The notes under the pieces were generated by a model, which saw only the letters and a program-made list of their open reading frames with translations, did not search any database and had not been told where the DNA came from. Source: Chitinophagaceae bacterium 26-R-25 (GTDB lineage: Bacteria > Bacteroidota > Bacteroidia > Chitinophagales > Chitinophagaceae). Taken from it: 64,000 nucleotides of DNA. The stretch lies in contig JARWSJ010000001.1 in NCBI GenBank assembly GCA_029906195.1, positions 1,674,001 through 1,738,000 of the forward strand, read 5' to 3'. The translations under genes and the position numbers were made by a program. Below are positions 461 to 63,724 of the stretch, one piece after another (position 1 is the first letter of the stretch; the number at the start of each line of letters is the position of its first letter).

Positions 461-576
461 GAAAAGCTTAAGGCTTAACGCATAAAGCCAAACGCATAAC
501 GCTTAACGCGGGGCACTCCGAAGATGCGCGGACCTTGCGTTAGGCATTAAGCGTTCAGCATTATGCCTTAATTAAT
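461..576. repeat. Imperfect inverted repeat, TTAACGC family (family A)
   Basis: Words of the type CATAACGCTTAACGC on the left (about 466-511) face GCGTTAGGCATTAAGCGTT on the right (about 536-575). The same word family makes hairpins at 3224-3295, 9934-10012, 21530-21592 and 56510-56581. It lies between the 3' end of the DUF4256 gene and the XRE gene. Confidence 0.75.
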
Positions 577-610
577 TTGAGTGGAAAGTATTTGGTAGGG
601 GAGCGCAAAT

Positions 611-1174
611 CTACACTTTTAATGAACACCTAAATCCTCTCGCTGCATAATAACTTTCTGCACCGTTATGATACAGGAACACGGTGTTGTAGCGGCGGTC
701 ACAAAAAACGGCGCCGCCGAGTTTGCGGATGTCGGCAGGAGTGGACACCCAACTGGAGGTTTTTAAATCGAACTGGCCGAGTTGCTGCAATTCGCGGTAT
801 TGGGTTTCGGTTAAGATGTCAACGCCCATGTCGGCCGCCATGTTGATGGCGCTGTCCGCAGGTTTGAATTCTTTTCTTGATTCCAGTGCGGCGTGGTCGT
901 AACAAAGACTTCTGCGGCCCTTGGGACTTTCCGCGGAGCAATCATAAAAAGTAAACTCGTTTGTTTTTTTATCGTAACTCACCACATCGGGTTCGCCGCC
1001 GGTTTCTTCCATTTTTTGCAGCGACCAACATTTATCTGGCTGCGCTTCAAGTTTTGTTTGCACGGCAGCCCAGTCAAGGCCTTTGTGGCGGTTCATGTTT
1101 TTTTCGAAACGGGTCTTTAAAGTTTTTAGTAGTTCGCCTGTTTCGGCGGTGGTGACTTTGTTTGTTTTTTTCAT
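611..1174 (-). CDS. DUF4256 family protein
   Basis: A soluble protein of 187 residues with no signal peptide or membrane segment. It carries the conserved blocks I associate with DUF4256: RFEKNMNRHKGL near the N-terminus, GGEPDVV and FYDCSAESPKGRRSLCYD in the middle, then NMAADMG, LTETQYRELQ, KTSSWV, IRKLGGAVFCDRRYN and a C-terminal HNGAESYYAARGFR. The biochemical role of the family is unknown. An ATG 12 codons further upstream (1210) is possible, but that stretch is made of a repeated ATCACCA word typical of the local intergenic repeats, so I prefer the start at 1174 (MKKTNKVT). It follows the YdeI-like gene on the same strand after a 301-base repeat-filled gap. Confidence 0.8.
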   Translation of the reverse strand: MKKTNKVTTAETGELLKTLKTRFEKNMNRHKGLDWAAVQTKLEAQPDKCWSLQKMEETGGEPDVVSYDKKTNEFTFYDCSAESPKGRRSLCYDHAALESRKEFKPADSAINMAADMGVDILTETQYRELQQLGQFDLKTSSWVSTPADIRKLGGAVFCDRRYNTVFLYHNGAESYYAARGFRCSLKV

Positions 1175-1210
1175 GGTTGGTTTGATTGATTGGTGATTGG
1201 TGATGGGCAA

Positions 1211-1396
1211 CTAGACCTAACAGGTTTCGGCGGACTTGTTCAAAGTAATTTAGCTGTCTGTTAAAACCTGTCAGGTCTGGCAAGGTTGCAAATTAAAAGC
1301 AATCTTGCTTGTCATCCCGAGGAACGAGGGATCTGGGAAATGCACTGGCAGGTTGTTTGTGTTAGTCTCAGATCCCTCGTTCCTCGGGGTGACAAA
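1211..1396. repeat. Two stacked inverted repeats in a 301-base gene-free gap
   Basis: The gap 1175-1475 holds no gene. First hairpin: AGACCTAACAGGTTT (1211-1225) faces AAACCTGTCAGGTCT (about 1264-1278), one mismatch. Second hairpin: the arm starting CATCCCGAGGAACGAGG at about 1313 faces CCTCGTTCCTCGGGGTG ending at about 1393, with the pairing extending to about 30 bases and two or three mismatches. A shorter pair, CAATCTTGCT at about 1302 and AGCAAGATTG at about 1431, encloses the second hairpin. Confidence 0.85.
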
Positions 1397-1475
1397 TACC
1401 TTTCCGATTGAATGCTGACTCCCTGATTCAGCAAGATTGACTTTTTTCTAATTCCTAATTTCTAACTCCTAATTC

Positions 1476-2048
1476 CTAGTCTTCAAGTCCTTTGCCCGCC
1501 AATATTTGCGGCACATACTTTTCAATTCTGGCTTCACGCGTTTTCGCTTGTTTGGCTTGCGAGAAGTACAACAGATATCCTCGCTGGCGGCCGGGCGTTA
1601 GGGCTTCGAACGCTTTTTTGAGCGCAGGCTTTTTGTTGAGTTGCGCCTGGAACTCTTCGGGAACAGGATATTCTTTTGTCTTTTTAAGTGGCACTTTCAG
1701 TCCGGCTTTTTCTACTTCGATGGCCTCGTACACGTAGGATTTCAATGTGCGTTCCTTAATTTCTTTTATGTTGGTATAACGGATCTGGCGCTGCGCTTGT
1801 ACATTTTCTGTTTGCTGTATGAGTATGCCTTCGGGATCATTCAACAACGCACCTTTGAAAAACAACACGGCGCAATATTCTTTAAAAGTATGGATCAGCA
1901 CAATGTTGGTTCCTTCGTATTGATAACAAGGGCAACCCCATTTCACTTCTTCGGTAAGGCCGCAATCAAGAATGATCTTTCTTAATTTTTCTGTTTCCTT
2001 ACTCCAGGCTTTGTCTTTCTCGAAGTAAAAATCAGCCTTAGGATTCAT
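1476..2048 (-). CDS. YdeI/OmpD-associated family protein with DUF1801-like domain
   Basis: A 190-residue cytoplasmic protein. The N-terminal two thirds resemble the DUF1801 fold (W-x-x-E-x-x-x-LR near residue 15-25, EVKWGCPCYQYEGTNIVLI, then a conserved FFKGALLNDPEG block). The C-terminal part, LTPGRQRGYLLYFSQAKQAKTREARIEKYVPQILAGKG, matches the signature of the YdeI family (bacteriocin-protection-like). Genes of this kind often sit beside ArsR and SRPBCC genes in Bacteroidota, as here. The actual substrate or partner is unknown. The stop codon lies in a CTAATTCCTAG repeat word. Confidence 0.8.
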   Translation of the reverse strand: MNPKADFYFEKDKAWSKETEKLRKIILDCGLTEEVKWGCPCYQYEGTNIVLIHTFKEYCAVLFFKGALLNDPEGILIQQTENVQAQRQIRYTNIKEIKERTLKSYVYEAIEVEKAGLKVPLKKTKEYPVPEEFQAQLNKKPALKKAFEALTPGRQRGYLLYFSQAKQAKTREARIEKYVPQILAGKGLED

Positions 2049-2056
2049 TTTTGAAG

Positions 2057-2190
2057 TTTTTAGTTGATGGTTGTTGGTTGTTAGCGGCGGTTGATAGTTG
2101 GACGTTTGTTGTTAGATCCGTTGGCTTTTAGTCAGCTTATTTGACGTCAAAGCCTAACAACTAACAACGATCAACTAACAACTAACACCG
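2057..2190. repeat. Inverted repeat, GTTAGTTGTTAG family (family F)
   Basis: The left side (about 2062-2116) is rich in GTTGATGGTTGTTGGTTGTT words; the right side (about 2151-2188) is CTAACAACTAACAAC and relatives. The right arm runs into the 3' end of the DoxX gene and contains its stop codon. Confidence 0.8.
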
Positions 2191-2569
2191 GCTTCCTATC
2201 CGCCGGACGAAAATACCACGACACCGCGGTGAGCGTTAAAAGCAATATTACCGGAAAAATTGCTCCGACAGAAGCATCACCCGCAGCGATATGCGAAAAT
2301 AATGCGCCTGACATTATAAAGAAAAAACCTGCATATGCCCATTCTTTCAGGAGCGGAAATTTAGGAATCAGCACAACGATCGCGCCAACGATTTTGAGTA
2401 CGCCCAGCAGTGTGAGCATGTAAGCCGGAAAACCCAAAGTGTTCACGACGCTGTCGTAACCACCGGCGCCGGTTTTTGTTTTCATTAATTGTACAAGTCC
2501 GGTTGAGATCATTCCCAAAGCCAACCAGGCAGTGGAGATCCAGTAGATGATTTTTTGTGTCTTTGTCAT
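2171..2569 (-). CDS. DoxX-like membrane protein
   Basis: A 132-residue integral membrane protein with four predicted membrane helices (about 8-28, 47-66, 78-98 and 102-122). The layout and the motifs STGLVQLMKTKTGAGGYD and LGVLKIVGAIVVLIPKFPLLKEWAYAGFFF fit the DoxX_2 group. The role is unclear; relatives have been linked to redox homeostasis. It is downstream of ArsR and SRPBCC genes on the same strand, a common partnership. The last five codons (VLVVS) and the stop are written by the adjacent GTTAGTTGTTAGTTGA repeat word, so the C-terminus may be a repeat-derived extension. Confidence 0.85.
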   Translation of the reverse strand: MTKTQKIIYWISTAWLALGMISTGLVQLMKTKTGAGGYDSVVNTLGFPAYMLTLLGVLKIVGAIVVLIPKFPLLKEWAYAGFFFIMSGALFSHIAAGDASVGAIFPVILLLTLTAVSWYFRPADRKPVLVVS

Positions 2570-2581
2570 GATGATGATTTT

Positions 2582-2704
2582 AATAACTGAGTAACTGAAT
2601 GACTGAATAACTGAGGTTGAATATTTGAATAACTGAATGATTGGTGACAGGCTGTAACGTCGACTTTCAAGTTCAGTTATTCAGTCATTCAGTTATTCAG
2701 TTAT
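2582..2704. repeat. Near-perfect inverted repeat, AACTGAAT family (family B)
   Basis: The left arm (about 2581-2614) and right arm (2671-2704) are built of an 8-base unit AACTGAAT with one GACTGAAT variant. They match over about 33 bases with a single mismatch and enclose about 57 bases. It fills the gap between SRPBCC (stop at 2712) and DoxX (start at 2569). Confidence 0.95.
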
Positions 2705-2711
2705 TTGAACA

Positions 2712-3188
2712 CTAGATAGGTTGTTTCATTTTAGTTACAACTTCTTCCAGTCGGTTGTGGGCCATGTTGATGCCGCCGACGAATGGAAGTTTCATTACCT
2801 GGTCGCGCTGGGCAACAGTTTCGTAGATGACATGCATATTGAGGCGACTGGTATTGTCGGTCAGTTTTTCAAATTCGTAGACTTCGAGCTGCACACCGAA
2901 AGGAGTGTTTTCCATTTCGAATGTCCGGGTGATCTTTTGGCCTGGAAGCAATTCGTGGATTACGCCGCTGGCACTAAACACAACATTTCCTTTGGGGTCG
3001 CTGGTCTGGTACTGCCAGCTGCCGTGTTTTTGGCTTTCCAGTTTTATTACTTTGGTGCCCATCCATTGTTCCACAATTTCAGGTTCTACATATGCCTTAA
3101 ATAGCAATTCAACCGGCAATTCAAAATCTCTTGTGATGACTACATCGTGTTTGCCTTCTTCGGCAGTGACTTTTGTTTTTCGTTCCAT
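2712..3188 (-). CDS. SRPBCC / AHSA1-type START-like domain protein
   Basis: A 158-residue soluble protein made of one SRPBCC (Bet v 1-like) domain. Recognisable blocks are ITRDFELPVELLFKAYVEPEIVEQWMG at residues 19-45 (the AHSA1 start with its conserved W), GSWQYQ, VFSASGVIHEL, KITRTFEME and the C-terminal helix ending MAHNRLEEVVTKM. These domains bind small hydrophobic ligands in a deep cavity; the ligand here is unknown. It is 84 bases downstream of the ArsR gene, and ArsR-SRPBCC pairs are frequent, so co-expression is likely. Confidence 0.88.
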   Translation of the reverse strand: MERKTKVTAEEGKHDVVITRDFELPVELLFKAYVEPEIVEQWMGTKVIKLESQKHGSWQYQTSDPKGNVVFSASGVIHELLPGQKITRTFEMENTPFGVQLEVYEFEKLTDNTSRLNMHVIYETVAQRDQVMKLPFVGGINMAHNRLEEVVTKMKQPI

Positions 3189-3223
3189 CTGATAGTTTTT
3201 AATGTTAATGGTTTTTTGTGTTT

Positions 3224-3295
3224 GCTTAATGCTTAACGCCTAACGCTTAACGCGGCGGCTTCGTGTTTGGCATTAGGCGTTAGGCTTGCCTTTAT
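3224..3295. repeat. Inverted repeat, family A, overlapping the arsR-like stop codon
   Basis: CTTAACGCCTAACGCTTAA words on the left (3224-3255) face GGCATTAGGCGTTAGGC on the right (3279-3295). The right arm encodes the last residues (PNA) and stop of the ArsR protein. Confidence 0.85.
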
Positions 3296-3602: not shown

Positions 3603-3605
3603 TGT

Positions 3606-3647: not shown

Positions 3648-3678
3648 GCAAGTTTTTTGACGAGATTTTTTTGAGGGA

Positions 3679-9933: not shown

Positions 9934-10012
9934 AGCTTAAAGCTAAACGCCTAACGCTTAACGCGGAGGCTCACTGCGTTAAGCGTTAAGCGTTAGGCAT
10001 TGAGCTTTAAGC
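9934..10012. repeat. Inverted repeat, family A
   Basis: Left arm 9936-9964 and right arm 9976-10012 pair over 30 bases with two mismatches. Both carry a local variant, GCTTAAAGCT on the left and AGCTTTAAGC on the right. The 271-base gap 9755-10025 otherwise contains only AT-rich sequence, which must include the divergent promoters. Confidence 0.9.
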
Positions 10013-10025: not shown

Positions 10026-11324
10026 ATGAAAGAAATCCTCGTTGCAGGCGCAGGCAAATCATCTGTTTTCCTGATTGAATATCTTTTGCAACATGCTGCA
10101 AAAAAAGGTTTACACATTACTGTTGCCGATGCATTTTTACAGAATGCTGTTGACAAAATAAATAGCAATAAACATGGCACTGCTGAGAAACTTGATGTGA
10201 ATGATATTGAGAAAAGACAACAACTGGTTCGCAAAAGTGACATCGTTATTTCCATGTTGCCTCCTGCCCTGCACATAGCGCTGGCAAAGGATTGCCTGCT
10301 GTTTGAAAAACATTTACTCACTGCTTCCTATATTGATGATGCTGTAAAAAACATGAAGGACGAAATTGCGGGTAAAGATGTTTTGTTTCTTTACGAAATG
10401 GGCCTTGATCCGGGCATCGACCACATGAGTGCTATGCAAATGATTCATGCTATACAAAAAGATGGTGGCAAAATTATTTCTTTCAAATCGCATTGCGGCG
10501 GCTTAGTTGCACCTGAAAGTGATAACAATCCATGGCACTATAAAATATCATGGAACCCTGCAAATGTAGTAAGAGCGGGCAAAGCTGGTGCGTCATTTAA
10601 AGAAGATCACGAAATAAAAAACATCGGTTACGAGCATCTTTTTTCTCCGGAAAATAAAGTGATGGTGAACGATGAACTTTATTCTTTTTACGCCAACAGA
10701 GATTCACTTGCATACATCGACCTTTACCATTTGCACGACGCGAAAACTTTTGTAAGAACAACATTGCGTCATCCTGATTTCATTAAGGGTTGGGCAAGTA
10801 TTGTTGATTTGCAATTGACCGACGAAACAAAAAGGCTTCAAACAGATGGACTCTCCCCTGCCGGTTTCTTTAAAAAACATGTAGATGAAAATGGTTTGAA
10901 AAAAGCATTGCCAAATGATCCGACAATACTCGAACAGTTTGCTTTTATAGATTTTTACGACGATGGCGAACACATCAACAAAGGTCTGTTGACGCCCTGC
11001 GAAATACTACAATACCTGCTTGAGAAAAATCTTGTACTGATGCCTGATGACAAAGACATGATCGTGATGTTGCACGAAATTGAATTTGAAAAAAATGGAA
11101 ACACGCACTTACATAAAAGCAGCCTGGTAGTCATTGGAGATGATAATATTCATACGGCCATGGCTAAAACAGTCGGCTTGCCCCTTGCTATCGCAGCAAC
11201 AAAAATATTAGATGGAACAATCAAACTCCGCGGCTTACACATTCCTATCGTTCCTCAAATCTATGATGTTGTAATGAGCGAACTCGAAAAGTTGGGAGTG
11301 AAATTTTCACTAGTTGAAAGTTGA
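10026..11324 (+). CDS. Saccharopine dehydrogenase family oxidoreductase
   Basis: A 432-residue enzyme of the saccharopine dehydrogenase / LYS9-like group. The N-terminal Rossmann fold has EILVAGAGKSSVFLIEYLL (residues 3-21, GxGxxS-type nucleotide loop) and DIVISMLPPALH at about 78. The middle has FLYEMGLDPGIDHMSAM (about 122-140), the conserved substrate-domain motif, followed by FKSHCGGLVAPESDNNPW, where the catalytic residues of the family lie. In lysine metabolism this fold joins or splits glutamate and aminoadipate semialdehyde; in bacteria the exact substrate varies. The final three residues and stop lie inside a family C repeat arm. Confidence 0.88.
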   Translation: MKEILVAGAGKSSVFLIEYLLQHAAKKGLHITVADAFLQNAVDKINSNKHGTAEKLDVNDIEKRQQLVRKSDIVISMLPPALHIALAKDCLLFEKHLLTASYIDDAVKNMKDEIAGKDVLFLYEMGLDPGIDHMSAMQMIHAIQKDGGKIISFKSHCGGLVAPESDNNPWHYKISWNPANVVRAGKAGASFKEDHEIKNIGYEHLFSPENKVMVNDELYSFYANRDSLAYIDLYHLHDAKTFVRTTLRHPDFIKGWASIVDLQLTDETKRLQTDGLSPAGFFKKHVDENGLKKALPNDPTILEQFAFIDFYDDGEHINKGLLTPCEILQYLLEKNLVLMPDDKDMIVMLHEIEFEKNGNTHLHKSSLVVIGDDNIHTAMAKTVGLPLAIAATKILDGTIKLRGLHIPIVPQIYDVVMSELEKLGVKFSLVES

Positions 11325-11400
11325 AAATTGAAAGTTGAAAATGGTCTTAAAGTGCAGCACTCAAAGCATTTTCAACTTTCAACTTTCAATTTTCAATTAA
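11312..11400. repeat. Inverted repeat, TTGAAAATTGAAAG family (family C), between convergent genes
   Basis: Left arm 11312-11342 (GTTGAAAGTTGAAAATTG and onwards) faces right arm 11368-11399. They match over about 30 bases with a few mismatches around a 25-base loop. Both outer edges contain or touch stop codons: the plus-strand TGA at 11322-11324 and the minus-strand stop at 11397. Confidence 0.92.
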
Positions 11401-12787: not shown

Positions 12788-12937
12788 AACCAAAGTTCAC
12801 CACTAAGGCACTAAGGCCACTAAGCTTCACTAAGAGTCGCGACATATTCTTAAACGCTGAAAATAGCATTATCAGAGAGTTTGTAATCTCAGGAATCCCT
12901 TAGTGCGGCTTAGTGTCCTTAGTGCCTTAGTGTTGAA
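12788..12937. repeat. Inverted repeat, CACTAAGG family (family J)
   Basis: Left arm 12795-12834 (CACTAAGGCACTAAGGCCAC) and right arm 12898-12937 (ending CCTTAGTGCCTTAGTG) match over about 39 bases with about six mismatches. The right arm encodes the final TLRH residues and stop of the metalloprotease gene. Confidence 0.88.
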
Positions 12938-13768: not shown

Positions 13769-13882
13769 AAGTAACTGAATGACTGAATAACTGAATAACT
13801 GAATAACTGATCTTGAACGTCGATCTTTCCTCAATAATTCAATGATTCAACCTTCAGTTATTCAGTTATTCAGTTACTCAGT
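13769..13882. repeat. Inverted repeat, family B
   Basis: Left arm 13769-13810 contains four or five AACTGAAT units; right arm 13831-13882 carries the reverse complement ATTCAGTT units. The right arm includes the stop codon of the sirtuin gene. Confidence 0.9.
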
Positions 13883-14563
13883 CTTCCTCAGCATCTTCTG
13901 CAATTCCCGCACCCCCAGCGTGGCCGGCTTTTCAATCGCTGTCAGGTTGCCGATGGATGATACGTAAGGAATGCGTTTGTCTACAATATATTTTTCGATG
14001 TGATCAGGTGAATAGTTCACCAATCCAGCGGCAGGATAAACAACGAGGGATGTGCCCACTACTGCAAAAATATCTGCACGCCTTACAACGCTGATGGCAC
14101 TTTCAATCATTGGGACAGCCTCTCCAAACCACACGATATGCGGGCGCCACTGCGCACCATCGGAGGCTTTGTCTCCCAGTTTTATATCTTCTTTGATTGG
14201 GGCAATGAGATGTTCATTCTTTTCACTGCGCATTTTGAAAATCTCACCATGCAGGTGCATTACGTTGGTGGAGCCTGCCCGTTCGTGGAGGTCGTCGATA
14301 TTTTGCGTGATGATCTGAACATCAAAATCATTCTCTAGTTCAGCCAATGCTATGTGTGCATCATTTGGTTGCGCATCCAGTACATTTTTTCTCCGGAAAT
14401 TATAAAACTCCAGTACCAGCGCCGGGTTCTTCATCCAGGCATGCGGAGTTGCCACTTCTTCAATATCATATCCTTCCCACAGCCCGTCACTGTCGCGAAA
14501 TGTTTTCAATCCACTCTCCGCGCTAATGCCCGCACCGGTGAGGACGACAAGTTTTTTTTTCAT
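13874..14563 (-). CDS. cobB: Sirtuin-type NAD-dependent protein deacylase
   Basis: A 229-residue class III sirtuin. Visible are the NAD loop LTGAGISAESGLKTFRD (residues 8-24), QNIDDLHERAG (87-97), the catalytic histidine in HLHGE (His105), WFGEAVP (about 143) and VVGTSLVVYPAAG. Tyr54 and Arg57 (EFYNFRR) are the residue pair that in E. coli CobB and SIRT5 selects acidic acyl groups, so desuccinylase or demalonylase activity is likely. The four zinc-binding cysteines between His105 and WFGE are absent. An upstream in-frame start at 14605 is less likely; MKKKLVVLTG begins at 14563. Glu and the stop sit in a family B repeat arm. Confidence 0.9.
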   Translation of the reverse strand: MKKKLVVLTGAGISAESGLKTFRDSDGLWEGYDIEEVATPHAWMKNPALVLEFYNFRRKNVLDAQPNDAHIALAELENDFDVQIITQNIDDLHERAGSTNVMHLHGEIFKMRSEKNEHLIAPIKEDIKLGDKASDGAQWRPHIVWFGEAVPMIESAISVVRRADIFAVVGTSLVVYPAAGLVNYSPDHIEKYIVDKRIPYVSSIGNLTAIEKPATLGVRELQKMLRKTE

Positions 14564-15083: not shown

Positions 15084-15149
15084 GTGAAGTTTTGAGTTTT
15101 AAGTTATGAGTAGTGAGTTGTTAGCGCTATAAAAATAAGACGTTTTGGT

Positions 15150-15290
15150 AATTGAAAATTGAAAGTTGAAAGTTGAAAATGAGGTTGAAGTTATTGGCGT
15201 CAATGTTTATAAAAATAACCTGATTGCGCCAACTCAAACTGCCACACAGAGAAGGCATTTTCAATTCTCCACTTTCAATTTTCAATTCCT
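15150..15290. repeat. Inverted repeat, family C, widely spaced
   Basis: Left arm 15150-15181 (AATTGAAAATTGAAAGTTGA) and right arm 15255-15287 (TTTTCAATTCTCCACTTTC) enclose about 75 bases. The right arm lies just before the stop codon of the pcm gene. Confidence 0.85.
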
Positions 15291-18033: not shown

Positions 18034-18048
18034 TTTCGCTTCGTTCGT

Positions 18049-18250
18049 TTTTTAACCACAGAGGAAAAGAGGTTTTCTTCACGGAGGAAAGGAGAAATGC
18101 CTCAGAAAATAAACAGTGAGTAAAAGAGAGCTACGAAATAAATGATTTACAACGCCGATGCTTTCTTTGCCATTTCGCAACCGCTATTACTCACGAAGTA
18201 TAACCTCCGCTTCCTCTGTGAAAAAAACTCCGTTATCTCTGTGGTAAAAA
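18049..18250. repeat. Inverted repeat, CACAGAGG family (family I), in a 314-base gap
   Basis: Left arm about 18049-18094 (ACCACAGAGGAAAAGAGG and onwards) and right arm about 18205-18249 (CTTCCTCTGTG and ATCTCTGTGGT) pair at roughly three quarters of 45 positions, enclosing about 110 bases. It lies between convergent genes, with a canonical terminator of each gene at its two sides. Confidence 0.82.
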
Positions 18251-18271
18251 AAAAGACGCCTAGCGGCGTCT
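18246..18271 (-). terminator. Rho-independent terminator of der
   Basis: AGACGCC, loop TAGC, GGCGTCT (18254-18271), followed on the minus strand by nine T. Confidence 0.95.
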
Positions 18272-21311: not shown

Positions 21312-21383
<72 letters not shown>

Positions 21384-21529: not shown

Positions 21530-21592
21530 GCTAAATGCCTAACGCTTAACGCTGGGACCTCTGCGTTAAGCGTTAGGCATTTAGCGTTGAGC
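21530..21592. repeat. Perfect 23-base inverted repeat, family A
   Basis: Arms 21530-21552 and 21563-21585 are exact reverse complements (starting GCTAAATGCCTAACGC) around a 10-base loop. It precedes the stop codon of the GIN-domain gene at 21598. Confidence 0.97.
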
Positions 21593-23136: not shown

Positions 23137-23286
23137 AACAGTAATTTTAAGGTGTGACGGCCCTGCGGAAAAAAAGTTACAGGTTTTTCCATTTTTTATC
23201 CATTAATTTTGCGGTATCATTTACAGTCAATTATAACGACGTGATCCGGGCCCGGCACATTTTTATAATTGTCTTGTAAAATTCAG

Positions 23287-23370
23287 TTCCCGGGGTGCCT
23301 ATTTTTTGCAAAGCAAAATGGCTGAGATAATACCCGTAGAACCTGATCAGGGTAATGCCTGCGCAGGGAA
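23287..23370 (+). ncRNA. TPP (THI-box) riboswitch
   Basis: The conserved thiamin pyrophosphate aptamer is fully visible. P1 is formed by TTCCC (23287-23291) with GGGAA (23366-23370); GGGGTGCC follows at about 23292. GGCTGAGATAATACCCG (about 23320-23336) provides the pyrimidine-sensing CTGAGA. TAGAACCTGATCAGGGTAAT and GCCTGCGC complete P4 and P5. It lies 91 bases upstream of a TonB-dependent receptor on the same strand, so thiamin sufficiency should reduce receptor synthesis. No obvious terminator follows, so control may be at translation. Confidence 0.97.
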
Positions 23371-23460
23371 GGTGGCCAAAACTTCGTTGTTTCTATCCGC
23401 ATTCGCTTACGCAGCATTTCCATCAAAAACAATTTTTGTTAACCTTAAATGCATTTTCGC

Positions 23461-25841: not shown

Positions 25842-26002
25842 ACACAGATGACACGGATTAGACAGATTTACACTGATTTTTTAATAATTGAATAAACTGA
25901 ATGACTGAATAATTGAGAGTTTAGGTTTAATAGTTCTTTTTGACTTTGATCACTCAGTTATTCAGTCATTCAGTTTATTCAATTATTGAAGATCTGTGTG
26001 CC
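25842..26002. repeat. Nested inverted repeats, families B and K
   Basis: Inner family B arms 25881-25917 and 25953-25990 match over 37 bases with about two mismatches, and both contain the local variant AATAAACTGAATGACTG. Outside them GGCACACAGAT (25844-25854) faces ATCTGTGTGCC (25992-26002), the word of family K. The structure fills the gap between receptor and aspartokinase. Confidence 0.92.
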
Positions 26003-27293: not shown

Positions 27294-27520
27294 GAATTTG
27301 AAGATTTGAAAATTTGAAAATTCGTTCCCGGTAAGTTTCGTTATTTAATTTGGAATTGCTCAAATATCGAGAAGGCTTCGACAAGCTCAGCCTGACAGCG
27401 TAAACGAAATGTCAGGCTGAGCTTGTCGAAGCCTTCGCACATTTAAACGATTACAAAAGATCACTAGGTTGCTACACCTAATAATTTTCAAATTTTCAAA
27501 TTAGCATATTTTCAAATTAA
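27294..27520. repeat. Two nested inverted repeats (families E and L) between convergent genes
   Basis: Outer arms of TTTGAAAAT words at 27294-27324 and 27481-27520. Inner arms 27371-27397 and 27410-27436 are exact 27-base reverse complements (core GGCTTCGACAAGCTCAGCC) around a 12-base loop. The outer arms touch the stop codons of both flanking genes. Confidence 0.96.
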
Positions 27521-34350: not shown

Positions 34351-34471
34351 ACGCAGATTTTCATGATTGTCAAGATTTTTATGATTTGAAAAAATCTTGG
34401 CAATCATGAAAATCATGAAAATCTGTGTCCTTCCTCATTTTCAAATTTTCAAATTCACATATTTTCAAATT
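34351..34471. repeat. Family H hairpin and family E arm, left of the VOC gene
   Basis: Family H: ACGCAGATTTTCATGATTG (34351) faces AATCATGAAAATCTGTGT (ending 34429) through an imperfect stem. It is followed by a family E arm (34436-34471) of TTTTCAAAT words whose last bases encode the C-terminal residues EFENM of the VOC protein. Confidence 0.85.
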
Positions 34472-40930: not shown

Positions 40931-40950
40931 AAATTCGCTATGCTACTACT

Positions 40951-41256
40951 AACGTGTCGCCCCTCTGGGGCTTGTAATAAATTAAAAAATATCGCTGCGA
41001 ACGCTGTCCTCCAAACAGAGCTTGTCTAATCCTCTTCTATTCATCATATCAAAGAGGTCTTCTCTCTCTAAACATCTTTCACCTTCGGAATTCAGCCCCA
41101 GCGGGGCTAAACGTTCGTAGCATCTGTTTGGCGTTCTACATCCCATTGCCAGCCCCATAGGGGCGATACGTAAATTAACATGTCGCTCCTACGGAGCTGG
41201 TATATTGATTGCAATGTCCTCGTTTTGCTACGAACATTGAGCTCCTAAGGGAGCTT
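40951..41256. repeat. Cluster of five REP-like palindromes
   Basis: In the 374-base gap 40931-41304 are GCCCC-TCT-GGGGC (40959-40971), GCCCC-AGC-GGGGC (41095-41107), GCCCC-ATA-GGGGC (41152-41164), GCTCC-TAC-GGAGC (41185-41197) and GCTCC-TAAG-GGAGC (41241-41254). The C to T change in one arm is compensated by G to A in the other. Flanks TGTCG and TTCGTAGC / GCTACGAA recur. They lie beside a REP-associated transposase pseudogene. Confidence 0.9.
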
Positions 41257-41304: not shown

Positions 41305-41767
41305 CTAATCATAAAATTCAAACAAATATTTCTCGTCATATTCAATTTCAAACTTCTCCAAAAATTCTAGATACTCTTTACGAAATGTTCGCTTTTGATG
41401 ATGCTCCTTTTGATTCAAAATATAATTAACCACCTGCGGCGTTTGTGATTTGGAATATGAAAACGCTCCAAATCCTTCCTGCCAACTGAAGCCTTCATTT
41501 ACAAAGCCTTGCTGCTTCAAATATCTTGTTGTATTTACCTTAATATCTCTTACCAATGTAGATCAATGATACATCGGGCTTAATACTAATCAACATGTGT
41601 ACATGATCTGGCATACAATACACTGCAAACAATTTTTGTTTCTTGTTTTTTATAATGCCCGTCATATACTTTTGTACATCTTCTCTAAAATCTCCCTTTA
41701 TAAAACATTTCCTTCCTTTTACTGCAAATACTATTTGAATATAGATCTGCGTATATGTGTTTGCCAT
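41305..41767 (-). pseudogene. REP-associated tyrosine transposase (IS200/Y1 type), frameshifted
   Basis: Two overlapping frames together make one Y1 transposase. The upstream frame (41767-41540) begins MANTYTQIYIQIVFAVKGRK and holds the HUH metal motif in YCMPDHVHMLI. The downstream frame (to 41305) continues VRDIKVNTTRYLKQQGF, WQEGFGAFSYS and has the catalytic tyrosine region VVNYILNQKEHH. After the shared SL residues one extra base near 41555 breaks the frame; removing it restores SLSTLVRDIK. The length is otherwise complete, about 150 residues. Such enzymes act on REP palindromes like those next door. Either the gene is dead, or the shift is programmed or a sequencing error. Confidence 0.85.
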
Positions 41768-46519: not shown

Positions 46520-46661
46520 TAGTTGTTAGTTGTTGGTTATTAGTTGTTAGACGTTGTGTGCAACTTTCTTTTTAAAAATTATAAACTCCAAGGGCTGAAT
46601 CTCGTAAAGAAGAAAACCCTCACAGAAAGCCTAACAACTAACAACCAACAACTAACAACTC
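46520..46661. repeat. Inverted repeat, family F, one mismatch in 30
   Basis: Arms 46521-46550 (AGTTGTTAGTTGTTGGTTAT and onwards) and 46631-46660 pair with a single mismatch around an 80-base loop. The right arm reaches the stop codon of priA at 46662. Confidence 0.95.
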
Positions 46662-50351: not shown

Positions 50352-50462
50352 TTCAAAAGTAAAAAATCAAAAGTCAAAAATGGAGCCCGCAAACAGGAGA
50401 CAAAGATCTCATTGCTAGGTCTATTTCTGACTTTTGACTTTTGACTTTTTACTTTTTACTTA
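50352..50462. repeat. Inverted repeat, family G
   Basis: Left arm 50352-50382 (AAAAGTAAAAAATCAAAAGT) faces right arm 50428-50462 (GACTTTTGACTTTTGACTTT). The right arm includes the stop codon of the agmatine deiminase gene (50460). Confidence 0.9.
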
Positions 50463-53678: not shown

Positions 53679-53683
53679 AAATT

Positions 53684-53820
53684 AATTGAAAATTGAAAGT
53701 TGAAAATTGAAAATGGGTTTTATGTGAAGCTCGACCCTTGTTTCCCAAACAGGATGCTAATGCAACAAGAATACTGCAACACAGAAAGCATTTTCAATTT
53801 TCAACTTTCAATTTTCAATT
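53684..53820. repeat. Perfect 32-base inverted repeat, family C, between convergent genes
   Basis: Arms 53684-53715 and 53789-53820 are exact reverse complements (AATTGAAAATTGAAAGTTG at the outer end) around a 73-base loop. The right arm contains the stop codon of the esterase gene (53815-53817). Confidence 0.97.
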
Positions 53821-54639
53821 ACCCAAAATCTCTTTGCTCCTCTTACCAACTTCTTTCAAAAGCAACGGAAACGCCGGTTCGGCCATGCCACCGTGATCAA
53901 AGCCTTGAAGTTCATATAAAGTTGTTCTCTTGTGACCTGCCAGTTTCATCATGCGGTTCAGGTATGCATTTTCTTCATAACGGCCATAAAGCTCCATTTC
54001 CCTGTCGCCTGTAATCAGCAAAATTGGCGGTGCATCGGCACGCACAAAATACAATGGCGCATACTCATCAATAACCGGCTGCGTTTCTTTGATGCCTCTT
54101 TCTGCACGAATCGTATAGTGTGTAATGGCTTGCCCGCTAAATGGAACCAGTTCAGCTATTTTGTCAGAATTAATATTGTATTTGCCCAAATATTTCTTGT
54201 TGAGTGTGATCATTTCTCCGAGATAACCGCCCGCCGAATGCCCTGAAACGAAGATCAGATCAGTATTGCCGCCGTATTCTGCAATGTGCTGAAATGTCCA
54301 TGCCACAGCAGCCGCTGCATCTACAATATAGGCAGGTGCTTTTACTTTGGGTGAAAGTCTGTACCCCACGCCAATCACCGCGTAACCTTTTTGCATCAAT
54401 GCATGTGGAATTTCCTTTTTACCACCTGTTATTCCGCCGCCGTGGAACCAAACAATGGTCGCAAAGTTTTTTACACCTTTCGGATAGTAAATATCGATGG
54501 TGCATTGTGAGTTGATGTAACCGTCTTTTTTGTTGATGGAATCTTCGTAGTAGTGAACATTTTTAATGGTATCGTATTGTTGCTGGGCACTTACACTAAT
54601 GGCGCATAAAAGCGCAAAGAAGAAAATGATTCTTTTCAT
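53815..54639 (-). CDS. Exported alpha/beta hydrolase (HSL/carboxylesterase type)
   Basis: A 274-residue hydrolase with signal peptide MKRIIFFFALLCAISVSAQ. The oxyanion-hole motif HGGGITGGKKEIP (about 65-77), the nucleophile in VSGHSAGGYLGEM (Ser at about 135), a predicted acid in ITGDREMELYGRYEEN (Asp at about 211) and the histidine in LQGFDHGGMAEP (about 248) complete the triad. It resembles BD-FAE / esterase-lipase proteins that act on carbohydrate esters in Bacteroidota. The substrate cannot be derived. The stop codon is supplied by the family C arm. Confidence 0.9.
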   Translation of the reverse strand: MKRIIFFFALLCAISVSAQQQYDTIKNVHYYEDSINKKDGYINSQCTIDIYYPKGVKNFATIVWFHGGGITGGKKEIPHALMQKGYAVIGVGYRLSPKVKAPAYIVDAAAAVAWTFQHIAEYGGNTDLIFVSGHSAGGYLGEMITLNKKYLGKYNINSDKIAELVPFSGQAITHYTIRAERGIKETQPVIDEYAPLYFVRADAPPILLITGDREMELYGRYEENAYLNRMMKLAGHKRTTLYELQGFDHGGMAEPAFPLLLKEVGKRSKEILGN

Positions 54640-54649: not shown

Positions 54650-54871
54650 TGCTAATTTGAAAATATGCAAATTTGAAAATGTTACAGGTCAAATATCCGT
54701 TATTTAATGCCAGCTCCAAACTCCTGAATTAAATATTTGAACAGTTAGAAAGGCCCCTATCACAGGAAATGGTCAACTCTCGGAATTTTCAAATTAGCAC
54801 ATTTTCAAATTAACACATTGCCGCCCCGCGGCCAATTTTCAAATTACCACATTTTCAAATTTTCAAATTTC
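54650..54871. repeat. Family E repeat block upstream of the acyl-CoA-binding protein gene
   Basis: Left words GCTAATTTGAAAATATGCAA (54651-54681) face repeated TTTTCAAAT words at 54784-54812 and 54835-54871. The right side is longer, with several extra units and a CCGCCCCGCGGCC insert (54820-54832). Confidence 0.82.
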
Positions 54872-56581: not shown

Positions 56582-56587
56582 TATAAA

Positions 56588-58573: not shown

Positions 58574-58725
58574 CAATAACTGAATCATTGATTTATTGAA
58601 GAATCAATAACTGAATAACTGATTAACTGAACTTGCAAGGGTAAGGCTCACCAATAATTCAATGATTCAATAATTCACCCCTTCAGTTATTCAGTTACTC
58701 AGTTATTCAGTTACTGAGTTATCCA
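58574..58725. repeat. Family B inverted repeat with expanded arms
   Basis: Left ACTGAATCATTGATTTATTG and ATAACTGAATAACTGATTAA (58578-58630) face several ATTCAGTTACTCAGTTATTC units at 58650-58724. The arms contain a different number of units. Confidence 0.85.
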
Positions 58726-59853: not shown

Positions 59854-59860
59854 AAAAGTC

Positions 59861-59952
59861 AAGTTGTTAGTTATTGGTTGTTAGTTGTTAGACATCAATG
59901 ACAACTATTCAAAATTAAAGGCTAATAACTAACAACCAACAACTAACAACTT
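59861..59952. repeat. Inverted repeat, family F, two mismatches in 31
   Basis: Arms 59861-59891 (AAGTTGTTAGTTATTGGTTG and onwards) and 59922-59952, loop 30 bases. It starts eight bases after the terminator T tract and stops five bases before the next -7 box. Confidence 0.95.
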
Positions 59953-59956
59953 GCGC

Positions 59957-59981: not shown

Positions 59982-60500
59982 TTGGCAAACTATACAATTC
60001 ATACTTCCCTGGCTTTTATTGCAGCAGAAGCAACCGCAAAAGAAACCGAAAATGATGCATTCACTTCCTTTCTCAAAAATGCGGAAGACAGCAAACAGAT
60101 CGACACGATCGTTCATGAATTGAATGATGAAATCAGTCCTGCGATAGATTGCACAACTTGTGGTAATTGTTGTAAGTCTTTGATGATAAATGTAACCGAG
60201 ACAGAATTACAAAAACTTTCTGCAGCATTGCAGCAGCCTGCAGATTCAATTAAAGAGAAATATCTTGAGCAGGGATTAGGCAACGAATATGTTATCAATA
60301 CAATTCCCTGTCATTTTCTAAGCGATAATAAATGCACTATCTACGAGCATCGTTTCCAGGGATGCCGGGACTTCCCTCACCTCCATCAGGATAATTTTAC
60401 AAGAAGATTGTTTTCAATGTTCATGCACTATGGCACTTGCCCGATTATTTACAATGTGATGGAGCAGTTGAAGAAGAGAACGGGATTTAGGAATGACTGA
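59982..60500 (+). CDS. YkgJ-family cysteine-cluster protein
   Basis: A 172-residue protein of the YkgJ (UPF0153) zinc/iron-binding family. CTTCGNCCKS (residues about 56-65) gives the first cysteine group; IPCHFLSDNKCTIYEHRFQGCRDFPH (about 107-132) and a late CPII (about 151) supply the rest, in the usual CxxCGxCC ... C ... C ... C pattern. It likely binds an Fe-S cluster or zinc; the role is unknown. There is no in-frame ATG near the start, so the TTG at 59982 (ANYTIHTSLAF) is used, right behind a -7 box. The last residues ND and the stop are written by the family B arm that follows. Confidence 0.85.
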   Translation: MANYTIHTSLAFIAAEATAKETENDAFTSFLKNAEDSKQIDTIVHELNDEISPAIDCTTCGNCCKSLMINVTETELQKLSAALQQPADSIKEKYLEQGLGNEYVINTIPCHFLSDNKCTIYEHRFQGCRDFPHLHQDNFTRRLFSMFMHYGTCPIIYNVMEQLKKRTGFRND

Positions 60501-60620
60501 ATAACTGAGTAACTGAATAACTGAACTTGATGATCAACCTTTCTTCAATGATTCGATCATTCAGTTTTTCAATCATTCAGTTTATTCAGTTATTCAGTTA
60601 CTCAGTTATTCAGTTATTTC
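60494..60620. repeat. Inverted repeat, family B, shared by two convergent stop codons
   Basis: Left arm 60494-60525 (GACTGAATAACTGAGTAACT) contains the plus-strand stop TGA at 60498-60500. Right arms 60550-60620 (repeated ATTCAGTT and ATTCAGTTACTCAG) contain the minus-strand stop at 60614. Confidence 0.92.
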
Positions 60621-61348: not shown

Positions 61349-61602
61349 AAAGATGATTTTGATAATAAATGCTGATTTATACTCTTTAACATTCAGGAGT
61401 TTAAAATGTTGCGAACCATTCAACTTTCTAGCCCCGCATTTTACTGTTAAATCCACCTTCTTCAGTGAACAATTGTTTGAATATGTGGTTATAAAGTAAA
61501 TACCAGCAACGGTGTTAAGACTGTGTTTACTAATCAAATACCTATCGAGTTCCTTCATACCCGCCGATACCCTCATTTTTGACATTAAAACACTAATTAA
61601 GT

Positions 61603-62247
61603 ATGCGAATCAAAAAAGCTTATCCGAAGGCTATTGCAGCCGTACTAATTCTCTCCACGAGCCTTATGTTATCGGGTTGTTATCCTTCTGCACCTGATTA
61701 CATCTCAGACTATGATCTGGTTTACACACAACCAGATAATTCCTTCGACTTCTCTAAAGTAACAACATACATGTTACCAGATTCAGTAGAGCATATTACC
61801 AACCCCGGCGACAAGCCTGACCACACTTATGATGCTGTTATTCTTTCTGAATTAAAGAAACAGCTAGATGCGTTGGGTTGGCAACAAGTTACCAATTCTG
61901 CCGGCAGTGTGATGGTGCTTCCTTCTGTAACTGCATCTAAACAAGGTGTGTGCACCGCTTACTGCTGGTGGTGCTACTGGGGCTGGTATCCGGGCTGGGG
62001 ATATTACCCTCCTGTAAACTGGAACCCCGGCTACTGGTATCCTTCAGACATCGTGTGTGCCAGTTACAATACAGGTACACTCATGGTAAACATGACAAAC
62101 CCCGCACAACCGAAAGGCAACCAGCTGGGCGTTGTTTGGTTGGGTGTTCTTAATGGATTGCTTGAAGGCTCTACCTCCAGCATTGCTACCAGAATTCAGA
62201 CAAACATTGGTCAAATGTTTAAACAGTCACCTTATTTAAATCAATAA
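61603..62247 (+). CDS. DUF4136 family lipoprotein
   Basis: A 214-residue lipoprotein. The lipobox LSGC (residues about 23-26, IAAVLILSTSLMLSGCYPSAP) anchors it in a membrane. DYDLVYTQPDNSFDFSKVTTYMLPDSV (about 37-63) matches the start of the DUF4136 domain; ILSELKKQLDALGWQQV and GTLMVNMTNPAQ are later family blocks. An aromatic Cys-rich middle (CTAYCWWCYWGWYPGWGYYPP) is typical of this group. It is the first gene of a pair with the barrel gene 10 bases downstream, so the two are probably co-transcribed. Confidence 0.85.
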   Translation: MRIKKAYPKAIAAVLILSTSLMLSGCYPSAPDYISDYDLVYTQPDNSFDFSKVTTYMLPDSVEHITNPGDKPDHTYDAVILSELKKQLDALGWQQVTNSAGSVMVLPSVTASKQGVCTAYCWWCYWGWYPGWGYYPPVNWNPGYWYPSDIVCASYNTGTLMVNMTNPAQPKGNQLGVVWLGVLNGLLEGSTSSIATRIQTNIGQMFKQSPYLNQ

Positions 62248-62257
62248 ACACGACATT

Positions 62258-62857
62258 ATGAAATACCTTTTAACCATAATAGCGGCGTTAACTTTTTATA
62301 CGGCAGTAAACGCGCAGCAAGTAGCAGAGTTCAGCTACCAGGTATCGTTTCCGACAGGCAGCTTTAAAGATTTCGTGAGTAAAACTGGTTGGGTAGGATT
62401 TAGCGGAGCCTATCTTCACAGACTCAAAAATCCTCAACTATCACTCGGCGGAGCATTCACATGGTTCTATTTCCAGGATAAAAAAGGACATGGAACATAT
62501 CCTACAGACAAAGAAAACGCCGCTTTAACAAGTAACCGCAGCAACTATACCAACATTTATCAATTGGTGGCTTTGGTGCAATACGACTTCAAGAACCCCA
62601 AAGAACATATGGTGCCTTATGCAAGAATCGGTGTTGGCGGCGCCTACCAGGATCAACGCTCTGACAATGGTCTATACATCATACAGGCAGACGGAGTGCA
62701 GTTTGCAGCCCATGCAGATCTTGGCTTGCGATTTAACAGAGACGAAAATCATGGCGTTTATATAGCTGCTACCTATAACACTTTGCCCGCTGCGCAGGCC
62801 ATGACCGCGACTACCTTTTTTGGAATAAAGCTTGGCATCAGTGGATGGGGACATTAA
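62258..62857 (+). CDS. Outer-membrane beta-barrel protein
   Basis: A 199-residue exported protein with signal peptide MKYLLTIIAALTFYTAVNAQ. The mature part alternates strands and turns: AEFSYQVSFPTGSFKDFVSKTGWVGFSGAYLHRL, LSLGGAFTWFYFQDK, YQLVALVQYDFKNPKEHMVPYARIGVGGAYQD, FAAHADLGLRFNRDENHGVYIAATYN and a last strand FFGIKLGISGWGH. It fits the eight-stranded outer-membrane protein group (OmpW/OprF-like). It follows the DUF4136 lipoprotein gene by 10 bases. The exact role is unknown. Confidence 0.85.
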   Translation: MKYLLTIIAALTFYTAVNAQQVAEFSYQVSFPTGSFKDFVSKTGWVGFSGAYLHRLKNPQLSLGGAFTWFYFQDKKGHGTYPTDKENAALTSNRSNYTNIYQLVALVQYDFKNPKEHMVPYARIGVGGAYQDQRSDNGLYIIQADGVQFAAHADLGLRFNRDENHGVYIAATYNTLPAAQAMTATTFFGIKLGISGWGH

Positions 62858-62858
62858 A

Positions 62859-63024
62859 GGTGTGATAATTTGAAAATTTGCGAATTTGAAAATTTGAAAA
62901 TTCTTTACGTGCAGCTTATTAGTAATTTAAAAGCAGTCTGCTCCACAAGAATGAATGAAATTAATTGGAAAGATGAACAGAATGCATTTTCAAATTAGCA
63001 TATTTTCAAATTTTCAAATTCACT
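62859..63024. repeat. Inverted repeat, family E
   Basis: Left arm 62866-62902 (AATTTGAAAATTTGCGAATT and onwards) faces right arm 62984-63022 (CATTTTCAAATTAGCATATT and onwards), loop about 80 bases. The left arm starts nine bases after the barrel gene stop. Confidence 0.92.
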
Positions 63025-63085
63025 CAGTGCAAACCATCGGTACATTTTTCTCTATAACCATTCATTAAATCTTAATTATTGTTTT

Positions 63086-63631
63086 ATGAAAAAGTCTCTA
63101 TTGATTCTAATTGCTTCTATCTCGTCGCTCAGCATCTTTGCGCAGGATGATGTAGTGATCAAAGGTTCCGGCGCTACTCCTGTTACGGAGCAAATGGCTC
63201 CTAAAAAAGTTGTTGATAGTCTTCACCAAAGATTTCCCGATGCGAAGTCTGTTCAGTATTTCAAAGCAAATCCTGCTAATGTAAAAAAATGGAACATTAC
63301 GCATGAAGACAATTTGCAATCTGGTGAAACCATTGACCACTACACCATTAGTTTCAAACGGGATGACATGCAATATTATGGTTTGTACGATGCAAACGGA
63401 CACTTGCTGGTATCAAGACTTGAACAAAAAGACGCAGAACTTCCCGAAGCGGTAAAAGCTTCTCTTAAAAAAGCAGGTGAAGGAAAAGGATACACTATAG
63501 TAGACAAAACTTATTATAAAACCAGCAACTACGGCAATCACAAAGAATACTACGAAGTAACCGCCACCAACGGTTCTAAGAAGAAGAAAGTGATTGTTGC
63601 GCCGGATGGCACGATTGTAAAAGTTAAATAG
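63086..63631 (+). CDS. PepSY-like / putative beta-lactamase-inhibitor-like periplasmic protein
   Basis: A 181-residue exported protein with signal peptide MKKSLLILIASISSLSIFAQ. The mature part holds two PepSY-like repeats: VVDSLHQRFPDAKSVQYFKANPANVKKWNITHEDN (about 42-76) and LPEAVKASLKKAGEGKGYTIVDKTYYK (about 118-144), followed by YEVTATNGSKKKKVIVAPDGTIVKVK, the characteristic ending of the Bacteroidota PepSY-like (BLIP-like) family. Such proteins may inhibit or assist periplasmic proteases; here the target is unknown. The stop TAG lies in a family D repeat word. Confidence 0.86.
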   Translation: MKKSLLILIASISSLSIFAQDDVVIKGSGATPVTEQMAPKKVVDSLHQRFPDAKSVQYFKANPANVKKWNITHEDNLQSGETIDHYTISFKRDDMQYYGLYDANGHLLVSRLEQKDAELPEAVKASLKKAGEGKGYTIVDKTYYKTSNYGNHKEYYEVTATNGSKKKKVIVAPDGTIVKVK

Positions 63632-63724
63632 GAATTAGAAATTAGGAATTAGAAGAAAGCAGCATCCACTAGTAAATGGTGCACTCTTCTAATTCCTAAC
63701 TCCTAATTTCTAATTCCTAATTAC
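63629..63724. repeat. Inverted repeat, AGGAATTAG family (family D), between convergent genes
   Basis: Left arm 63629-63657 (TAGGAATTAGAAATTAGG and onwards) faces right arm 63685-63722, which has one additional GGAGTTA unit. Each outer end includes a stop codon. Confidence 0.93.

What the first reader, a model, noticed from the sequence alone, without database searches (positions are those of the whole stretch)
461..63724. Genome-pervasive inverted repeats made from short-period words in most intergenic gaps
At least ten word families (AACTGAAT, GTTAGTTGTTAG, TTGAAAATTGAAAG, CTAACGCTTAACGC, TTTGAAAAT, AGGAATTAG, AAAAGTC, CACTAAGG, CACAGAGG, CACACAGATGACAC) recur in more than twenty gaps. In most they form two arms of 23-42 bases facing each other across a loop of about 10-110 bases. 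Exact or near-exact examples: 53684-53715/53789-53820 (32 of 32), 21530-21552/21563-21585 (23 of 23), 27371-27397/27410-27436 (27 of 27), 46521-46550/46631-46660 (29 of 30), about 2582/2671 (32 of 33). Loop sequences are unrelated. Nothing in the coding annotation explains this.
Basis: seen in the sequence. Interest (0 to 1): 0.85.

Follow-up and report, generated by a model that had tools for sequence, protein, structure and literature searches.

The report
Palindromic repeat elements after stop codons
A bacterium and two sister species carry many short palindromic DNA elements, most built from repeated 7- or 8-letter words, right after the ends of genes; between the species the middle of an element can be flipped and its word exchanged for another, so the gaps between genes change while the genes stay in place.

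Summary
In the window 22 of 49 gaps (>=40 nt) hold an inverted repeat (IR), 35 of 49 an IR or a short-period word array. In 464 kb of the genome 101 of 107 IRs are intergenic; shuffled gaps gave none. Window: genus Pinibacter. Thirteen other genera sampled gave 10 IRs in 514 kb.

New here: (1) periodic-armed IRs abut stop codons, medians 2-4 nt. (2) Arms face one way in 156 of 156 family hits. (3) Against P. aurantiacus 7 of 32 homologous loops are INVERTED between the arms; non-orthologous control 1 of 300; I hold five of the seven firm. (4) The same slot can carry another word: TTGAAAR faces TTGAGAG in 11 of 15, AATTARG faces AATTAAT in 7 of 9. (5) Some same-family loops are related (106 of 1064 pairs).

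Stem mismatches show no transcript-strand G-U bias (67 vs 69), so RNA pairing is not visibly selected. Best reading: many families of small palindromic DNA elements that spread, nest, flip and replace each other at gene 3' ends; mobiliser unknown.

The parts
1309..1395 (.). non-periodic palindrome TTGTCATCCCGAGGAACGAGGGATCTG, arms 26/27, loop 33
2055..2183 (.). GTTAGTT-word IR, 27/30, loop 69, overlaps the stop end of a minus-strand gene
2582..2705 (.). AACTGAAT-word IR, 37/40, loop 44; G002 has a CACGGATGACACGGATT element in this slot
9935..10012 (.). CTTAACGC-word IR, 28/30, loop 18, divergent gap
11314..11396 (.). TTGAAAR-word IR between convergent stops; TTGAGAG in G001
12796..12937 (.). 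CACTAAGG-word IR, 35/39, loop 64; loop inverted in G001 (46/67)
13781..13883 (.). AACTGAAT-word IR, 29/30, loop 43; same word and loop, same orientation, in G001 and G002
15150..15287 (.). TTGAAAR-word IR; G002 same word, G001 TTGAGAG
18048..18252 (.). CACAGAGG-word IR, 34/42, loop 121
21530..21585 (.). CTTAACGC-word IR, 23/23, loop 10
25883..25987 (.). AACTGAAT-type IR, 34/35, loop 35; a CACACAGATGACAC arm and a short counterpart lie outside it
27295..27518 (.). TTTGAAAAT-word arms enclosing the TTCGACAAGCTCAGCC palindrome 27371-27436; in G001 the inner element is CACTAAGG
34356..34414 (.). GAACGCAGATTTTCATGATT element, 24/25; G001 has a TTTGAAAAT element here
46521..46660 (.). GTTAGTT-word IR, 36/40, loop 60; in G001 and G002 an AAGGCATTGCCTT palindrome stands where the right arm is
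50355..50456 (.). AAAAGTC-word IR, 24/25, loop 52
53683..53821 (.). TTGAAAR-word IR, 33/33, loop 73, between convergent stops; same word in G001 and G002
54653..54812 (.). TTTGAAAAT-word IR, 26/28, loop 104
58604..58717 (.). AACTGAAT-word IR, 26/28, loop 58
59860..59953 (.). GTTAGTT-word IR, 30/32; G002 has a CACAGAGG element in this slot; a hairpin followed by a T run lies just before it
60492..60618 (.). AACTGAAT-word IR, 33/34, loop 59, between convergent stops
62863..63016 (.). TTTGAAAAT-word IR, 28/31, loop 92; loop inverted relative to both G001 and G002
63625..63723 (.). GGAATTAG-word IR between convergent stops; AATTAAT word in G001 and G002
41410..41755 (-). decayed Y1_Tnp (PF01797) transposase remnant with in-frame stops, beside AGCCCC...GGGGC palindromes at about 40940-41250

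Best explanation
These are many families of small palindromic DNA elements (about 50-270 bp in the lists): two arms, mostly 21-41 nt and in most families made of a 7- or 8-nt word repeated head to tail, facing each other across a variable loop. They behave as non-autonomous mobile or copyable elements kept up at the DNA level. Shown: abundance in the three species held; position at stop codons; one arm orientation; dispersed copies that share arms and loop; nesting; inversion of the loop between the arms; different word families in the same orthologous slot, in a non-random table. Inferred: new elements enter at the stop-codon end of a gene or inside an existing element; slippage lengthens and evens out the words; recombination or replication template switching between the arms flips the loop and keeps the arms alike; invasion and erosion exchange the family. 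The mobilising enzyme is not identified.
For: Density: 101 of 107 IRs intergenic in 464 kb, 0 in shuffles; 187 of 443 gaps >=60 nt in 764 kb: convergent 54/88, tandem 108/262, divergent 25/93. Thirteen other genera: 10 IRs in 514 kb. Stop abutment of periodic-armed IRs: median 4 nt (tandem, n=65) and 2 nt (convergent, n=35), 43 nt to the start in tandem gaps. Orientation 156/156 family hits. Loop inversion 7 of 32 homologous loops W-G001, control 1 of 300; clearest 85/96 inverted against 56/113 forward. Dialect table; whole-genome counts TTGAGAR x3 50, 296, 2 in G000, G001, G002. Same-word pairs: loops 23 FWD, 7 INV, 5 none, 2 short; different-word pairs: 0 FWD, 0 INV, 2 BOTH, 23 none, 17 short. 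Paralogous copies. Nested in W, not nested in G001 at the same gap: window coordinates 137807 and 128573. DNA-level upkeep: G-T 67, A-C 69 among non-pairing positions in tandem gaps, read on the transcript strand.
Against: No transposase gene with the same word-armed family on both sides was found among seven Y1-transposase loci; other transposases were not searched. No target-site duplication was demonstrated. At 299001 and 320833 both arms changed word around a shared terminator-like hairpin, which fits rewriting of arms better than replacement of whole elements. Loops of TTGAGAG elements in G001 are mostly unrelated to each other (3 of 55 pairs related), unlike a fresh burst from one master. 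Only 106 of 1064 same-family loop pairs are related. In several copy pairs the alignment runs 20-50 nt past the element, so the ends of the moving unit are not fixed.
Confidence: 0.6

Rival explanations
1. Selected RNA hairpins at gene 3' ends: bidirectional terminators or 3' stabilisers, as proposed for hairpins in chloroplast spacers; loops flip as a by-product.
For: Position directly after stops and enrichment in convergent gaps; arms diverge less than loops (10.4% vs 18.1% W-G001, 18.2% vs 25.5% W-G002); terminator-like sites at 15 of 64 convergent 3' ends with an IR against 11 of 24 without; flipping loops in hairpins are known from trnH-psbA, with a possible role in mRNA stability (PMC2903610, passages).
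Against: No excess of G-U over A-C on the transcript strand in tandem gaps (67 vs 69 standing mismatches; 44 vs 37 between-species single changes, p 0.51); periodic arms are 26% G+C; some loops already hold a terminator-like hairpin; in tandem gaps terminators are about as frequent with and without an IR (9 of 66 vs 12 of 68 ends); 25 of 93 divergent gaps hold IRs.
Confidence: 0.17
2. No mobility: arrays grow by slippage, and quasi-palindrome template switching copies one arm onto the other.
For: Stem pairs changed on both sides exceed independence: 43 of 1302 (25 complementary) against about 14 expected from the arm rate (the expectation is my arithmetic; misalignment in arrays inflates it); array lengths differ by whole words between orthologues.
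Against: The same few words recur at hundreds of places; dispersed copies share loop sequence; slots differ by unrelated words, e.g. CTTAACGC and AACTGAAT.
Confidence: 0.1
3. REP/REPIN-type elements moved by RAYT or related Y1 transposases.
For: GTAG-ended palindromes are present; a decayed RAYT-type gene with its own palindrome cluster lies at 41410-41755; G000 also has one open, more distant Y1_Tnp frame (206 aa, 30.7 bits, over the cut-off 23).
Against: The word-armed families have long periodic arms and no GTAG tag in the lists; word-armed IRs near the Y1 genes stand on one side only, as beside other genes; the RAYT-like copy is decayed in G000, which has the most TTGAAAR hits of the three.
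Confidence: 0.06

Closest known systems
TAACTGA direct repeats (MacGregor 2015, PMC4679880; abstract, sections 3 and 12, and passages)
   Same: One word here contains TAACTGA; intergenic; the forward word gives stops in all three frames; patchy over phyla.
   Different: In the main genome there: 169 direct sets, most just upstream of start codons, one inverted case (in one cyanobacterium eight sets lay between stops). Here: paired inverted arms, more than a dozen words, at stop codons, with loop inversion.
Small dispersed repeats and heptameric tandem repeats of cyanobacteria (Elhai et al. 2008; content recalled, paper not held; reference seen in PMC3116915)
   Same: As recalled: very small elements, nested, often inside heptamer arrays.
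   Different: I recall no inverted pairs of heptamer arrays, no species dialects at orthologous slots and no loop inversion there.
REP/REPIN and RAYT (PMC3733652, passages; PMC3116915, passages)
   Same: Small dispersed palindromes; GTAG-ended ones coexist here.
   Different: REP stems are 5-13 bp with a GTAG or CGTC tag; word arms are mostly 21-41 nt, periodic and untagged.
Chloroplast hairpin-loop inversions, trnH-psbA (PMC2903610, passages)
   Same: The loop between inverted repeats flips between close relatives.
   Different: Described for single spacers, not as a dispersed multi-family population of word arrays.
Bacterial invertible segments (PMC5903667, PMC10939037; listing with start of abstract)
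   Same: Inverted repeats flank an invertible segment.
   Different: No recombinase identified; IRs here are commonest at gene 3' ends; inversion seen only between species.

Membership tests
MITE | terminal inverted repeats around a short non-coding core | tested here: met
MITE | dispersed copies sharing core and arms, flanks different | tested here: met
   nine chosen pairs aligned, (likeness ends at or within about 60 nt of the element in eight; the TCATCCCGA pair is alike to the edge of the stretch compared); 106 of 1064 same-family loop pairs
MITE | target-site duplication | tested here: inconclusive
   orthologous gaps inspected by eye; no constant duplication seen, palindromic ends blur it
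MITE | cognate transposon with the same ends | tested here: inconclusive
   none around seven Y1-transposase loci; other transposase families not searched
REP/REPIN | GTAG or CGTC tag beside a short stem | tested here: not met
   not seen by eye in the word-armed families listed; seen in the separate GTAG families
REP/REPIN | copies flanking a RAYT gene | tested here: not met
   no word-armed family on both sides of the Y1_Tnp genes looked at
TAACTGA repeats (MacGregor) | direct array just upstream of a start codon | tested here: not met
   periodic IRs in tandem gaps: median 43 nt from starts, 4 nt from stops; 17 of 65 within 20 nt of a start, 50 of 65 of a stop
Intrinsic terminator | GC-rich stem followed by a T tract | tested here: not met
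   periodic arms 26% G+C; T-tract hairpins at 15 of 64 convergent ends with an IR; terminator-like hairpins sit inside some loops
Invertible DNA segment | loop found in both orientations | tested here: met
   between species
Invertible DNA segment | dedicated recombinase and within-clone switching | not tested
   no reads available; recombinase genes not searched

The most novel reading that the evidence does not exclude
A trans-acting system writes or exchanges the arms: a recombinase or a template-bearing polymerase recognises inverted word arms at hundreds of gene ends, flips the loop, exchanges cassettes, and changes the word of many slots in one lineage at once, much as a change in a telomerase template changes every telomere. 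The slot-specific dialect table (TTGAAAR facing TTGAGAG, AATTARG facing AATTAAT) and two loci where both arms differ around a shared terminator-like hairpin are what this would predict.
Probability: 0.06. Interest if true: 0.93.

Novelty: new variant of a known kind. Interest (0 to 1): 0.62.

Why it matters
By even extrapolation from 107 IRs in 464 kb, roughly 1,500 would lie in the 6.5-Mb genome, changing gene ends within a genus while gene order stays over the compared region. How heptamer arrays and very small palindromes arise and spread in bacteria is an old open question; three syntenic species with visible exchange, nesting and inversion make it directly testable. The strand-bias test also warns against reading every long 3' hairpin as a selected terminator.

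Tried and rejected
RNA-pairing selection: tested by strand-specific G-U versus A-C counts, not supported (convergent gaps 39 vs 28, p 0.22, are uninformative because both strands may be transcribed). Canonical terminators: fewer at convergent ends with an IR, no clear difference in tandem gaps. RAYT as mobiliser: no word-armed family on both sides of the Y1_Tnp genes looked at. Rfam: only a tRNA and a TPP riboswitch in the window. A register test for in-place word change was done by eye on the alignments and was mixed, so it is not used. Stop codons on entry (mean 2.55 of 3 frames inward, 1.13 outward, 234 arms) look striking, but the independent units are about 15 families, and for TAACTGA the point is in print (PMC4679880). 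The smaller inversion count (28 FWD, 8 INV, 31 none over three comparisons) was superseded, whose other comparisons gave W-G002 5 FWD, 2 INV, 9 none, 3 short and G001-G002 9 FWD, 1 INV, 8 none, 2 short. Rows dropped: loops under 20 nt (24 of 118 pairs); gaps without a found orthologue (31 of 236 for G001; G002 fetched in part only, 70 of 236 found). The control used 40 shuffles per pair, the real pairs 100. Weak INV loci: 71354 (its loop holds another palindrome) and 160241 (loop of 22 nt). Some 'different-word' pairs are failures of my labels (e.g. 126859, 158414). Gene calls are greedy ORFs of my own; family labels are word lists of mine. In some searches the reversed-pattern control also matches long arrays, so it is no control there. 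In this second version I corrected: 13 (not nine) other genera; 56 (not 57) other genomes; 7 of 394 other genomes; the open Y1_Tnp frame in G000, for which the RAYT rival went from 0.05 to 0.06.

That the paired, inverted, dialect-switching form is not in print rests on searches (and 67 for Pinibacter), in a library that lacks most subscription papers.
Full report
Setting. The window is G000:C1:1674001-1738000 of a 6.51-Mb genome in 6 contigs. I call the window's genome W.

1. The observation. The quoted arm pairs are real, the 2582 pair in a different register. Ungapped IRs (score >=18: match +1, mismatch -2, loop up to 200) number 22 in the window and 107 in 464 kb made of the window and 20 spread 20-kb stretches; 101 of the 107 lie in gaps, and ten dinucleotide shuffles of the 287 gaps gave none. 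In the window 22 of 49 gaps hold an IR and 35 of 49 an IR or a short-period array; shuffles gave an array in 0-3 of 49. AACTGAATAACTGAATAACTGA (up to 2 mismatches) gives 806 hits in W, 896 and 356 in the two congeners, and one hit in total in the other 56 genomes searched. Samples from 13 other genera gave 10 IRs in 514 kb; two of the ten have heptamer arms (AAAAGTC in L106, GTGAATG in L037). In a phylum sample a TTGAAAR array pattern occurs in 7 and a CACTAAGG pattern in 7 of 394 other genomes, with 1-13 hits each.

2. Anatomy. In 764 kb, 187 of 443 gaps of at least 60 nt hold an IR: convergent 54/88, tandem 108/262, divergent 25/93. Arms have a median of 30 nt and loops of 49 nt; where arms are periodic (117) the best period is 7 or 14 in 83 and 8 or 16 in 28; 70 are not periodic. 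Periodic IRs lie a median of 4 nt from the stop in tandem gaps (n=65) and 2 nt in convergent gaps (n=35), against 43 nt from the start in tandem gaps. In a number of ends the stop codon is itself in step with the array, e.g. TAA-CTGAAT or TGA-AAATTGAAA (149 ends within 25 nt examined). All 156 family hits face the same way; an element can count in two families, and copies are not independent. Periodic arms are 26% G+C; of 40 elements drawn, those under 200 nt fold with a median of -45 kcal/mol.

3. The elements are a mixture. Word-armed families include AACTGAAT, TTGAAAR, TTGAGAG, AATTARG, AATTAAT, GTTAGTT, AAAAGTM, TTTGAAAAT, CTTAACGC, CACTAAGG, CACAGAGG, CACRGATGACAC and the longer GAACGCAGATTTTCATGATTGTCATGATTT. 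Beside them stand non-periodic palindromes (TCATCCCGACGAAGGAGGGATCTG, TTCGACAAGCTCAGCC, GTAGAGAC..., GTAGGGGCGAA...), the last two with a GTAG end as in REPs. 29 nested pairs were scored in W, G001 and G002 data, some of them neighbouring copies of one family; true nesting includes CTTAACGC in AACTGAAT, CACAGAGG in CACTAAGG, TTCGACAAGC in TTTGAAAAT. At 137807 and 128573 W has an element inside a CACTAAGG element that is plain in G001.

4. Copies. Most same-family loops are unrelated, but 106 of 1064 same-family pairs pass the shuffle threshold, against 104 of 11816 other pairs. Nine chosen pairs were aligned with 60 nt of flank: in eight the likeness ends at the element or within that flank, often fading over 20-50 nt; three elements of one composite (TTGAAAR arms around a GAACGCAGA element) are among them. 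In the TCATCCCGA pair the likeness (192/204) reaches the edge of the compared stretch, so a larger unit moved there.

5. Orthologous slots. 205 of 236 gaps of W (384 kb) have an orthologue in G001 and 70 in G002, of which less was fetched. An IR is present in both W and G001 at 79 gaps, in neither at 77, in W only at 25, in G001 only at 24. Loops of the 79: 23 forward, 7 inverted, 2 both, 28 no likeness, 19 too short; 300 non-orthologous pairings gave 299 none and 1 inverted. Clearest inversion: 150076, 85/96 identical when inverted against 56/113 as it stands, coding flanks 29/30 each. Others I hold firm: 62858 (63/92), 256124 (46/60), 196972 (64/92), 12711 (46/67), and 77966 for G002 against W and G001. 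Weak: 71354 and 160241.

6. Dialects. Where the word is the same, loops are mostly homologous (23 FWD, 7 INV, 5 none, 2 short); where it differs they are not (0 FWD, 0 INV, 2 BOTH, 23 none, 17 short). The exchange is not random: TTGAAAR in W faces TTGAGAG in 11 of 15 and TTGAAAR in 4; AATTARG faces AATTAAT in 7 of 9; CTTAACGC faces AACTGAAT in 4 of 6; AACTGAAT, CACTAAGG, GAACGCAGA and TTTGAAAAT face themselves in 9 of 13, 5 of 6, 5 of 7 and 5 of 5. Whole-genome counts agree: TTGAAAR x3 837, 335, 293 and TTGAGAR x3 50, 296, 2 in W, G001, G002 (overlapping hits, so long arrays weigh more); AATTARG x3 421, 206, 135 and AATTAAT-type 55, 172, 73. With G002 as third species, the change at 15084 looks derived in G001, and those at 3189 and 63632 derived in W or shared by the other two. 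Two loci go against simple replacement of whole elements: at 299001 and 320833 both arms differ in word around a shared terminator-like hairpin.

7. Why the arms match. Between W and G001 (48 elements with alignable loops) arms differ at 10.4% of positions, loops at 18.1%, adjoining coding DNA at 8.3%; stem pairs changed on both sides number 43 of 1302, 25 of them complementary, above the about 14 that independence would give, though misalignment in arrays inflates this. If RNA pairing were selected, G-U should be tolerated more than A-C on the transcribed strand. In tandem gaps standing mismatches are 67 G-T against 69 A-C, between-species single changes 44 against 37. So the likeness of the arms is better put down to DNA processes. 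This assumes transcription from the upstream gene through the element.

8. Mechanism. Shown: dispersed copies, nesting, inversion, exchange of word at a slot. Inferred: how an element arrives and what moves it. A decayed Y1 transposase lies in the window at 41410-41755 with its own AGCCCC...GGGGC palindromes and has an open frame at the same place in G002; G000 has one further open, more distant Y1_Tnp frame. None of the seven Y1 loci looked at has the same word-armed family on both sides. Loop inversion needs only arms and recombination or template switching; hairpin-loop inversions are known from a chloroplast spacer (PMC2903610, passages).

9. Known kinds. The nearest printed relatives are TAACTGA repeats (PMC4679880), REP/REPIN elements (PMC3733652, PMC3116915) and, from memory, the small dispersed repeats of Nostoc. 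In what I read of these I saw no paired inverted word arrays at stop codons that change word between species and flip their loops.

Noticed in passing
window 41410-41755 (-), palindromes at about 40940-41250: Decayed RAYT-type transposase beside a cluster of AGCCCC...GGGGC palindromes; open frame at the syntenic place in G002.
   Followed up: partly
window 23281-23387 and 21312-21383: TPP riboswitch upstream of a plus-strand gene, and a tRNA gene.
   Followed up: no
G001:C1:142795-142906 and similar places: Very long TTGAGAG arrays, as if freshly expanded by slippage.
   Followed up: no
own 384-kb join at 340830-341031; G001 join at 320470-320733: Terminator-like hairpins sit inside loops of word-armed elements.
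   Followed up: partly
inner loop edges of several families, e.g. window 46621-46631 and 53779-53789: Motifs like CACAGAAAGC or CACCTAAAGC recur at the inner end of loops of different word families; seen by eye, not counted.
   Followed up: no
L106:2689-2847 and L037:6539-6604: Word-armed IRs (AAAAGTC; GTGAATG) in two other genera of the family.
   Followed up: partly
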